40,075 nucleotides of DNA, from NCBI GenBank assembly GCA_017633115.1, contig JAGBPZ010000062.1, positions 1 to 40,075 of the forward strand, in the 5' to 3' direction. The stretch's first letter is position 1, and every line of letters begins with the position of its first letter. Source of the DNA: Erysipelotrichaceae bacterium (GTDB lineage Bacteria > Bacillota_I > Bacilli_A > Erysipelotrichales > Coprobacillaceae). Below, in pieces: positions 15,081 through 16,604 of the stretch. The position numbers and the translations under genes are program-made. Below the pieces are notes generated by a model, which had not been told where the DNA came from, did not search any database, and saw nothing but the letters and a program-made list of their open reading frames with translations.

Positions 15081-15110
15081 GGATACCGCTTATTGGCGAT
15101 ATCTTTTTTT
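15081..15110 (+). terminator. Terminator of the NUDIX gene, overlapping the ROK 3' end
   Basis: GATACCGC, 5-base loop, GGCGATATC (one mismatch inside the stem) followed by seven T residues on the plus strand. The hairpin contains the ROK stop codon (15090-15092). On the minus strand it is followed by TTTT, so it may serve both genes. Confidence 0.75.
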
Positions 15111-16505
15111 ACTTAACTCTTTAATAGATAGAATAAGTAAACCGATGTAAGAATAAGATTGCATTTCTGCAGGACGAACAAAGTCTGGAAGATATTCTTC
15201 AGGAATATATTTGATTAACTCCTCTTTGAGTCTTTCAATTGAAGGCAGGAATTGATTAAAAACGACGATTAATTCAGGAGCAACCTGAGAAATAATAGCC
15301 AAACATTCCTGGGTTAATAATTCAATACTGCCATTCACTGTTTTATTTAATTCCAGTCGACTCGCTGATAAGTTCATAGGCAGAAACTGAACCTCACCAG
15401 CACAAGCGCAATGCCCTACTAATAATTCATCATTGATGATATGACCGATACCAGCATGTGTTGTAATAGGTTGGAATAACGCCGTTAAATTATGATACTT
15501 GTCTTGAGTCGCATGATATCCAACTGCTACGGCATTCACATCGTTCGCAAGTACGACTTTGGTATGATAACGTCTTGTCAGTTCTCCAGAAAAATCAATT
15601 CGATAATCAGGCATTCCATTGACGCTCATCAATTTAGCTTTCCCTTCATTGACAATACCTGGAAGCGATAAAGCAATGACATCTATATGCTTATGGGACA
15701 TGAAAATCATATCAATCACATCAAACAGATCGTTGAGAGATAAAGAATATTTAATAATATTATCTTTATCTAAAAGTTCATTATGTCGTCCATATAATTG
15801 ATAGTCTACATGTATACGGTCACTGTTACGAATAATAGCCATTGTCAGAATCTCACCATGTTCTTCTGACAGAATATCAACATCAACATTTTCTTTATGA
15901 TCAGTTTCATTTTTGATTTCTGTCTCTTTGATAAGCTCAATAAGCTTACCTGTATCGTAGCGGGCAAAGACTTTTGGTGGCATATTAATAATCAATTTAT
16001 TAGGAAATCTCAGCTGCAGTTCAGCTTGCTTATAAGCTATTTGAGGGGCTAAAAGTAAAATTGAATATTGATTAATGACATCTTCAATTTCATCAAAAGC
16101 TACAGCATCAAAATAATAGTCCAGTTTAAGCATTTCACTGACGTCATTGAGTTGTAAGGCAAAGAAACCTGTCGTTAAACCACCTGTACATGATAAAAGA
16201 ATCTTTTTCACAGGTTTATTAACGAGTTCCTTCACTAACGACAACATTTCATCGAACAAATCCTGAGCATGTTTAAGATTGTTCATCTGAAAATGCAAAT
16301 AGAATTCATTATCTCTTGTATAGCTGTTGACAACGCTCATCTCAAATATATTATCTTGGTGAAGTTTGATTTCAGATTTACTATAAGGGGTCTTAAGCTG
16401 AACACCATCATCAAAAGCATCAACTTCAATCATGTCAGGATAATTAAAACTTTTGACATATTCAAGAAAGACAGCTGCATTAATCTCTTTTAGAAAACGA
16501 TCCAT
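15090..16505 (-). CDS. Fusion of a PTS EIIB-like domain and a degenerate ROK domain
   Basis: A 471-residue protein of unusual make-up. Residues 1-95 are unrecognised. Residues ~98-190 resemble a lactose/cellobiose-type PTS EIIB domain: KKILLSCTGGLTTGFFALQL, with Cys106 at the phosphocysteine position, and SILLLAPQIAYKQ, matching the LLGPQVxY element. Residues ~215-471 resemble a ROK domain: ALSLPGIVNEG, VVLANDVNAVAVGYH (catalytic-type Asp322) and GIGHIINDELLVG followed by CAGEVQFLPM. The ROK phosphate motif (DxGGT) and the CxCGxxGC zinc motif are missing, and there is no helix-turn-helix, so it is probably neither a kinase nor a classical repressor. GGAGG lies 7 bases before the ATG. It has its own promoter downstream of pyk. 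A sugar-sensing role is inference. Confidence 0.7.
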   Translation of the reverse strand: MDRFLKEINAAVFLEYVKSFNYPDMIEVDAFDDGVQLKTPYSKSEIKLHQDNIFEMSVVNSYTRDNEFYLHFQMNNLKHAQDLFDEMLSLVKELVNKPVKKILLSCTGGLTTGFFALQLNDVSEMLKLDYYFDAVAFDEIEDVINQYSILLLAPQIAYKQAELQLRFPNKLIINMPPKVFARYDTGKLIELIKETEIKNETDHKENVDVDILSEEHGEILTMAIIRNSDRIHVDYQLYGRHNELLDKDNIIKYSLSLNDLFDVIDMIFMSHKHIDVIALSLPGIVNEGKAKLMSVNGMPDYRIDFSGELTRRYHTKVVLANDVNAVAVGYHATQDKYHNLTALFQPITTHAGIGHIINDELLVGHCACAGEVQFLPMNLSASRLELNKTVNGSIELLTQECLAIISQVAPELIVVFNQFLPSIERLKEELIKYIPEEYLPDFVRPAEMQSYSYIGLLILSIKELSKKRYRQ

Positions 16506-16515
16506 AATTTATCCT

Positions 16516-16530
16516 CCATTACGTTAATGG
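16516..16530. promoter_or_regulatory. Inverted repeat over the ROK promoter, possible operator
   Basis: CCATTA-CGT-TAATGG, a perfect 6-bp inverted repeat with a 3-base centre. It covers the ribosome site (16513-16517) on one side and the -10 of the ROK gene on the other, so a bound protein could block both transcription and translation. Confidence 0.4.
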
Positions 16531-16555: not shown

Positions 16556-16571
16556 GGATTTCCTGAAGAAT

Positions 16572-16599
16572 AAAAAAAACAGTTCCTGAGAACTGTTTT
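16572..16599 (-). terminator. Terminator of pyk
   Basis: Minus-strand AAAACAGTTC-TCAG-GAACTGTTTT followed by four more T residues (eight in all), 5 bases after the pyk stop. Confidence 0.93.
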
Positions 16600-16604
16600 C
16601 TTCA

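What the first reader, a model, noticed from the sequence alone, without database searches (positions are those of the whole stretch)
15090..16505. PTS EIIB-like domain fused to a ROK domain that has lost its kinase motif
Residues ~98-190 carry Cys106 in the EIIB phosphocysteine context (LLSCTGGLTT) and the LLLAPQIAY element; residues ~215-471 are ROK-like but lack the DxGGT phosphate loop and the zinc motif, and there is no helix-turn-helix. A protein that could be phosphorylated by the PTS and bind a sugar, encoded just downstream of pfkA-pyk, would be a plausible flux or sugar sensor of a type I cannot name. The first 95 residues match nothing I know.
Basis: partly seen in the sequence, partly recalled or inferred. 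Interest (0 to 1): 0.62.

Follow-up and report, generated by a model that had tools for sequence, protein, structure and literature searches.

The report
EIIB-ROK fusion protein, HTH-less regulator relative
The gene encodes a conserved three-part gut-bacterial protein that joins a sugar-uptake phosphorelay domain to a degenerate sugar-kinase-like domain descended from DNA-binding repressors, so it is probably an undescribed sensor of sugar traffic whose activity nobody has yet tested.

Summary
Window 15090-16505 (-) encodes an intact 471-aa protein: a frataxin-like alpha/beta domain (1-97), a complete lactose/cellobiose-type PTS EIIB domain (98-202; predicted structure matches IIB-chitobiose at Z 17.7, 1.4 A) and a ROK-fold domain (214-467) without DxGGT, zinc motif or helix-turn-helix. 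It is not an assembly fault. One to five end-to-end homologues occur in 31 of 37 genomes of its family (Coprobacillaceae, Erysipelotrichales), with sporadic copies elsewhere. Cys106 is invariant in 67 of 67 relatives gathered by overall similarity. The closest relatives of the ROK half are not kinases. They are HTH-ROK repressors encoded directly beside a free-standing copy of the N-domain+EIIB module. The fused proteins form one clade sister to these pairs, so the fusion joined two neighbouring genes and dropped the HTH. I read it as a PTS-phosphorylation-responsive, DNA-binding-less ROK sensor or co-regulator, a one-chain counterpart of the E. coli Mlc:EIIB-Glc complex (inferred; phosphorylation, ligand and output untested). 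The pfkA-pyk link is not conserved, and a strong terminator separates the genes. No publication describing the architecture was found in the open-access library searched. Novelty: new variant of a known kind, PTS-controlled regulators.

The parts
15090..16505 (-). EIIB-ROK fusion gene, 471 aa
   Evidence: end-to-end homologues
16215..16505 (-). N-terminal alpha-beta5-alpha domain, residues 1-97 (frataxin-like fold, no Pfam family)
   Evidence: AF2 pLDDT 95.3; VIA Z 8.8 to CyaY, 9.1 to TriTu immunity protein; no Pfam match above cut-off
16287..16295 (-). conserved H71-F72-Q73 of the N-domain (E55 also conserved)
   Evidence: H71 64/67, E55 66/67
15900..16214 (-). Lac/Cel-type EIIB domain, residues 98-202
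   Evidence: Z 17.7, 1.4 A to 2wy2 IIB-chitobiose
16170..16190 (-). EIIB phosphate loop C106-T-G-G-L-T-T112
   Evidence: C106 and G109 67/67
16041..16052 (-). LAPQ element of EIIB, residues 152-155
   Evidence: P154 and Q155 67/67
15105..15866 (-). ROK-fold domain, residues 214-467, without DxGGT, zinc motif or HTH
   Evidence: PF00480 E 6.4e-11; Z about 20-23 to ROK kinases and repressors; nested with HTH-ROK repressors
15534..15545 (-). N321-D322-V-N324, remnant of the ROK sugar site and catalytic Asp
   Evidence: N321 32/32, D322 29/32 fused copies
15393..15401 (-). A369-G370-E371; the following ExGH His is Phe/Tyr
   Evidence: sugar-site residues as in PMC5458393
16513..16517 (-). GGAGG ribosome-binding site
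   Evidence: sequence
16516..16530 (.). perfect palindrome CCATTA-CGT-TAATGG next to the start, possible operator
   Evidence: not found in relatives
16571..16604 (-). pyk terminator hairpin separating pyk from this gene
   Evidence: -16.1 kcal/mol, z -3.9
15082..15103 (-). own terminator, at the convergent junction with the NUDIX gene

Best explanation
This is a member of an expanded protein family of Coprobacillaceae/Erysipelotrichales: a PTS-responsive sensor or co-regulator without its own DNA-binding domain. Proposed mechanism: a Lac/Cel-type EIIA~P (one copy in this genome) phosphorylates Cys106 when EIIA~P is in surplus, i.e. when little PTS sugar enters; dephosphorylation reports uptake. 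The ROK cleft binds a sugar or sugar phosphate but cannot phosphorylate it. The two inputs set the contacts between the EIIB and ROK parts, and the output is protein-protein interaction, most simply with HTH-ROK repressors or other PTS partners. It arose by fusing two neighbouring genes, N-domain+EIIB and an HTH-ROK repressor, with loss of the HTH. Shown: domain composition, predicted fold, invariant phosphate loop, lost kinase and HTH features, the phylogeny of the ROK half, the split gene pairs, and EI plus EIIA-Lac in the genome. Inferred: phosphorylation, ligand binding, direction of the signal and output partner.
For: Invariant Cys106 phosphate loop and LAPQ in 67/67 relatives, down to ~25% identity. 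Full EIIB fold. The ROK half lacks the ATP loop but keeps three of five sugar-site residues, N321, D322 and E371; Tyr replaces the sugar-site His in L. monocytogenes NanK too. The ROK half is nested in HTH-ROK repressors: fused is one clade (SH-aLRT 99), fused+split 98, apart from kinases 100. Adjacent gene pairs of N-domain+EIIB and ROK regulator in five genomes, with HTH_24 above cut-off in two, argue that the two modules work together. EI in 38/38 good genomes and EIIA-Lac in this one. Near neighbours include HAD phosphatases 9/112, Mac acetyltransferases 7, PHP 5 and EIIB 4, against 2/92 for HAD and at most 1/92 for the others at distant positions. Precedents: Mlc inactivated by binding EIIB-Glc (Nam et al. 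2008, cited in PMC11393339); EIIB-like domain with conserved Cys419 in MtlR (PMC8560693).
Against: Most fused genes stand alone among unrelated genes, so no regulon or sugar can be named. There is no HTH, so the output is unknown. No phosphorylation data. Some paralogues in this genome change D322, so sugar binding may not be general. The precedent EIIB-Glc belongs to a different EIIB fold family from EIIB-Lac (from memory). Neighbour enrichment is modest and not corrected for relatedness. The inter-domain arrangement in the model is uncertain (pTM 0.72).
Confidence: 0.5

Rival explanations
1. It is a moonlighting or auxiliary EIIB: the EIIB domain passes phosphate to EIIC partners for transport, and the N- and ROK domains only anchor or regulate transport.
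For: Complete EIIB fold and phosphate loop; a few copies lie next to ordinary EIIB genes (L047, L056, L097).
Against: Fused copies rarely sit with EIIA or EIIC genes; ordinary 100-aa EIIBs exist in the same genomes; the partner in split pairs is a repressor, not a permease.
Confidence: 0.15
2. Phosphorylation-independent adaptor: the Cys loop binds a phosphorylated metabolite or has a structural role, and the protein scaffolds other proteins (for EIIB-like domains of AtxA and RivR the Cys is reported to be needed for dimerisation).
For: Dimerisation role of EIIB-like domains in PRD regulators (PMC8560693); lone genes without a PTS operon.
Against: All loop positions needed for phosphocysteine chemistry are kept, not the Cys alone; EI and EIIA are present in the good genomes that carry it.
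Confidence: 0.2
3. Active but unusual sugar kinase or hydrolase using the ROK cleft.
For: N321, D322 (the catalytic Asp position) and E371 are mostly kept; F. nucleatum NanK shows that the zinc motif can be absent while other active-site features stay (PMC5458393).
Against: DxGGT is absent throughout the clade and in its HTH-ROK sister; the ExGH His and the second Glu are lost; it is phylogenetically apart from the kinases; this genome already has four full-length ROK kinases.
Confidence: 0.06
4. Mis-assembly or frameshift joining two genes.
For: Split two-gene forms exist in relatives.
Against: 31 of 37 family genomes and named isolates such as Sharpea azabuensis, Kandleria vitulina and Eggerthia catenaformis carry the same fusion; this genome has three complete copies and one truncated copy.
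Confidence: 0.01

Closest known systems
E. coli Mlc with EIIB-Glc (PDB 3bp8)
   Same: A ROK repressor-type protein paired with a PTS EIIB; ROK half matches 3bp8 chain A at Z 19.2; same logic of reading PTS state through EIIB.
   Different: Here both parts are in one chain, the EIIB is Lac/Cel type, the HTH and zinc motif are missing, and an extra N-domain is present.
HTH-ROK repressors (NagC/XylR/Mlc type; Lmo0178, PDB 5f7r)
   Same: Fold and ancestry of the ROK half; no kinase loop in the near relatives; Z 20.7 to 5f7r.
   Different: No HTH; EIIB module in its place.
Lac/Cel family EIIB (IIB-chitobiose, PDB 2wy2, 1h9c, 1iib)
   Same: Whole-domain fold at 1.4-1.7 A, Cys phosphate loop, PQ element.
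   Different: Fused between two other domains, usually without EIIA/EIIC neighbours.
PRD/EIIB transcription regulators (MtlR, AtxA, Mga)
   Same: EIIB-like domain, in MtlR with a conserved Cys, inside a regulatory protein (PMC8560693).
   Different: Galactitol-type EIIB, PRDs and HTHs; no ROK domain.
S. aureus MecR2 (PDB 4ija) and F. nucleatum NanK (5nck)
   Same: ROK folds; NanK lacks the zinc motif (Z 22.2 and 22.0).
   Different: MecR2 is a DNA-binding anti-repressor (from memory); NanK keeps DxGxT and ExGH.

Membership tests
PTS EIIB, lactose/cellobiose family | Cys phosphate loop C-x-x-G-[LM]-[ST]-T | tested here: met
   CTGGLTT; C and G in 67/67 relatives
PTS EIIB, lactose/cellobiose family | domain fold and profile match | tested here: met
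   Z 17.7, 1.4 A over 103 residues; PF02302 24.1 vs cut-off 23.6 for the domain alone, but 20.5 (below) for the whole protein
PTS EIIB, lactose/cellobiose family | encoded with cognate EIIA/EIIC | tested here: not met
   neighbours unrelated in the window and in most relatives
PTS EIIB, lactose/cellobiose family | phosphorylated on Cys by EIIA and donates to sugar | not testable with these tools
   biochemical
ROK sugar kinase | ROK fold and PF00480 profile | tested here: met
   E 6.4e-11, 42.7 bits vs 22.9; Z about 22
ROK sugar kinase | DxGxT nucleotide loop | tested here: not met
   absent; hydrophobic residues at the position in fused and split copies
ROK sugar kinase | catalytic Asp in ND motif | tested here: met
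   D322 here, 29/32 fused copies
ROK sugar kinase | ExGH and CxCGxxGCx(E/D) zinc motif | tested here: not met
   AGEVQF with no Cys-rich loop (motif definitions from PMC5458393)
HTH-ROK repressor (NagC/XylR/Mlc) | ROK half in the repressor lineage | tested here: met
   tree, fused+split 98, apart from kinases 100
HTH-ROK repressor (NagC/XylR/Mlc) | N-terminal winged HTH | tested here: not met
   no HTH profile; the N-domain folds alpha-beta5-alpha
PRD/EIIB regulators (MtlR type) | HTH, PRD and EIIB-Gat domains | tested here: not met
   no HTH or PRD profile; EIIB is of Lac/Cel type
Frataxin | frataxin fold with iron-binding acidic helix | tested here: inconclusive
   Z 8.8, 2.7 A over 89 residues, 11% identity; could be a shared topology only, function not tested

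The most novel reading that the evidence does not exclude
A lineage-specific class of PTS-phosphorylated ROK pseudo-repressors: single proteins in which a Lac-type EIIB has permanently captured a ROK repressor body. They act without touching DNA, for example by forming mixed dimers with true HTH-ROK repressors, so that each paralogue couples one sugar ligand and the PTS phosphorylation state to gene expression.
Probability: 0.3. Interest if true: 0.75.

Novelty: new variant of a known kind. Interest (0 to 1): 0.56.

Why it matters
In E. coli a ROK repressor and an EIIB meet only as separate proteins. Here evolution first put their genes side by side and then fused them, which makes the EIIB-ROK link testable in one purified chain. 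The family is abundant (one to five fused copies plus stand-alone N-domain+EIIB copies per genome) in common gut Coprobacillaceae such as Thomasclavelia, Faecalibacillus and Sharpea relatives. If the reading is right it is a main, undescribed layer of sugar sensing in these bacteria.

Tried and rejected
Plasmid collection: no match. PHROGs: only a weak match. Operator idea: the palindrome at 16516-16530 does not recur in relatives. Linkage to pfkA-pyk: no relative has the orthologues next to the gene. DNA binding by the N-domain: the fold gives no HTH. Best structural neighbours of the N-domain are the TriTu immunity protein and frataxins at Z 8-9, too weak to infer function; Foldseek E-values for the N-domain alone were all above 0.001. 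The literature searches found no description of an EIIB-ROK fusion, but only open-access PMC text was searched. Motif conservation from the genome contigs set was not used because that set was retrieved with GLTT and FYLHFQ patterns.

Full report
Observation. The ORF at 15090-16505 (-) is intact, 471 codons with an ATG and a GGAGG site. Profile searches find a lactose/cellobiose EIIB domain (TIGR00853 E 8.6e-13; PF02302 just above cut-off when the domain is scanned alone) and a ROK domain (PF00480 E 6.4e-11). Residues 1-97 match no Pfam family above cut-off.

Not an artefact. A protein search of 60 related genomes found end-to-end homologues in most genomes of the same family, often several per genome. 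Counting rows that span both halves gives one to five fused copies in 31 of 37 genomes of family f1. Named isolates with the same architecture include Sharpea azabuensis, Sharpea porci, Kandleria vitulina, Eggerthia catenaformis, Faecalibacillus faecis and Longibaculum muris. This genome has three complete copies and one cut by a contig end. A profile of the N-domain plus EIIB run over 392 genomes of the phylum hit the whole module in all 17 sampled f1 genomes and only rarely outside; elsewhere essentially only the EIIB part matched ordinary EIIBs.

Structure. The AlphaFold2 model (71 sequences in the alignment; mean pLDDT 88.9, pTM 0.72) shows three domains. Residues 99-201 superpose on IIB-chitobiose at 1.4 A over 103 residues (Z 17.7). 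The ROK half gives Z about 20-23 to NanK-type kinases and to repressors including Lmo0178, and Z 19.2 to Mlc in its complex with EIIB-Glc. The N-domain modelled alone has pLDDT 95.3 and an alpha-beta5-alpha sandwich resembling frataxin/CyaY (Z 8.8) and the TriTu immunity protein (Z 9.1), at 11-13% identity. This is a topology match only.

Conservation. In 67 relatives gathered by overall similarity, not by motif (32 fused, 35 stand-alone N-domain+EIIB), Cys106, G109, P154 and Q155 are identical in all; E55 is kept in 66 and H71 in 64. In the ROK half N321 is kept in 32/32, D322 in 29/32 and E371 in 31/32 fused copies. The ExGH His is Tyr or Phe in 31 of 32 and the zinc loop is gone. The sugar-site residues of ROK proteins are N, D, E, H and E (PMC2742894; PMC5458393); three of five are kept, and the His-to-Tyr change is also seen in L. 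monocytogenes NanK.

Origin. In five genomes the N-domain+EIIB module is a separate 200-230 aa gene directly upstream of a regulator-like ROK gene with an N-terminal extension of HTH type (HTH_24 above cut-off in two of five, weaker or degenerate in the others). A tree of ROK halves puts all fused copies in one clade (99), sister to these split partners (98), inside a larger set of HTH-ROK repressors and apart from the ROK kinases (100) (SH-aLRT, short search). The simplest history is an operon of N-domain+EIIB and HTH-ROK repressor, fused once with loss of the HTH. A tree of the N-domain+EIIB part agrees: 36 fused copies and one solo copy form one group (97). Loss of the kinase loop precedes the fusion, because the HTH-ROK relatives lack it too.

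Context. The gene is its own unit: a strong hairpin after pyk (16571-16604, -16.1 kcal/mol, z -3.9) and an own terminator (15082-15103). pfkA-pyk are not near the homologues. Fused homologues are mostly lone genes. Among direct neighbours of fused and stand-alone copies, HAD phosphatases, Mac-type acetyltransferases, PHP phosphoesterases and EIIBs are somewhat commoner than at five to six genes' distance; I regard this as weak support for a sugar role. EI occurs in all 38 good genomes tested and EIIA-Lac in this genome; its EIIA gene and one EIIB gene stand without an EIIC nearby in the sequence held.

Mechanism. Two lines, gene adjacency and fusion, say that the N-domain+EIIB module and the ROK repressor module act together. 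The classical precedent is Mlc, a ROK repressor inactivated by direct binding to EIIB-Glc (Nam et al. 2008, as cited in PMC11393339); EIIB-like domains with a conserved Cys also occur in MtlR-type regulators (PMC8560693). I therefore propose that Cys106 is phosphorylated by EIIA-Lac, that the ROK cleft binds a sugar without phosphorylating it, and that the output is a protein contact rather than DNA binding. Only the anatomy, conservation and ancestry are shown.

Filing. It is an EIIB domain by fold and motif, a ROK domain by fold and descent, but not a ROK kinase and not a ROK DNA-binding repressor. It works like a PTS-controlled ROK regulator; it is filed as a new variant of that kind.

Noticed in passing
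L191:6326-8195, L195, L196, L198, L200, L201, L207; own genome L133:8562-10443: A family of HTH-ROK repressors is almost always encoded directly upstream of a PHP-domain phosphoesterase in Coprobacillaceae, a conserved pair of unknown role.
   Followed up: partly
L120, L135, L139, L146, L148: Stand-alone N-domain+EIIB genes are repeatedly adjacent to maltose-acetyltransferase-type (Mac) genes.
   Followed up: partly
L129:8612-9951: Two stand-alone N-domain+EIIB genes in tandem, next to an RpiR-like regulator gene and a phosphoesterase gene.
   Followed up: no
window 16516-16530: Perfect palindrome CCATTACGTTAATGG overlapping the ribosome-binding site of the fusion gene, possible operator; not found near relatives.
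   Followed up: yes
L070, L076, L078, L091, L105: Fused homologues in contigs labelled Selenomonadaceae and Atopobiaceae (metagenome bins), suggesting horizontal transfer or wrong binning.
   Followed up: no
L208:8983-9282 and L209:7513-7818 (own genome): EIIA-Lac gene and an EIIB gene without an EIIC gene nearby in the sequence held; the EIIA lies near a contig end.
   Followed up: partly
L110:8955-10360: The N-domain+EIIB ORF is followed by a truncated ROK ORF after a gap of about 177 bases, probably a decaying fusion gene.
   Followed up: no
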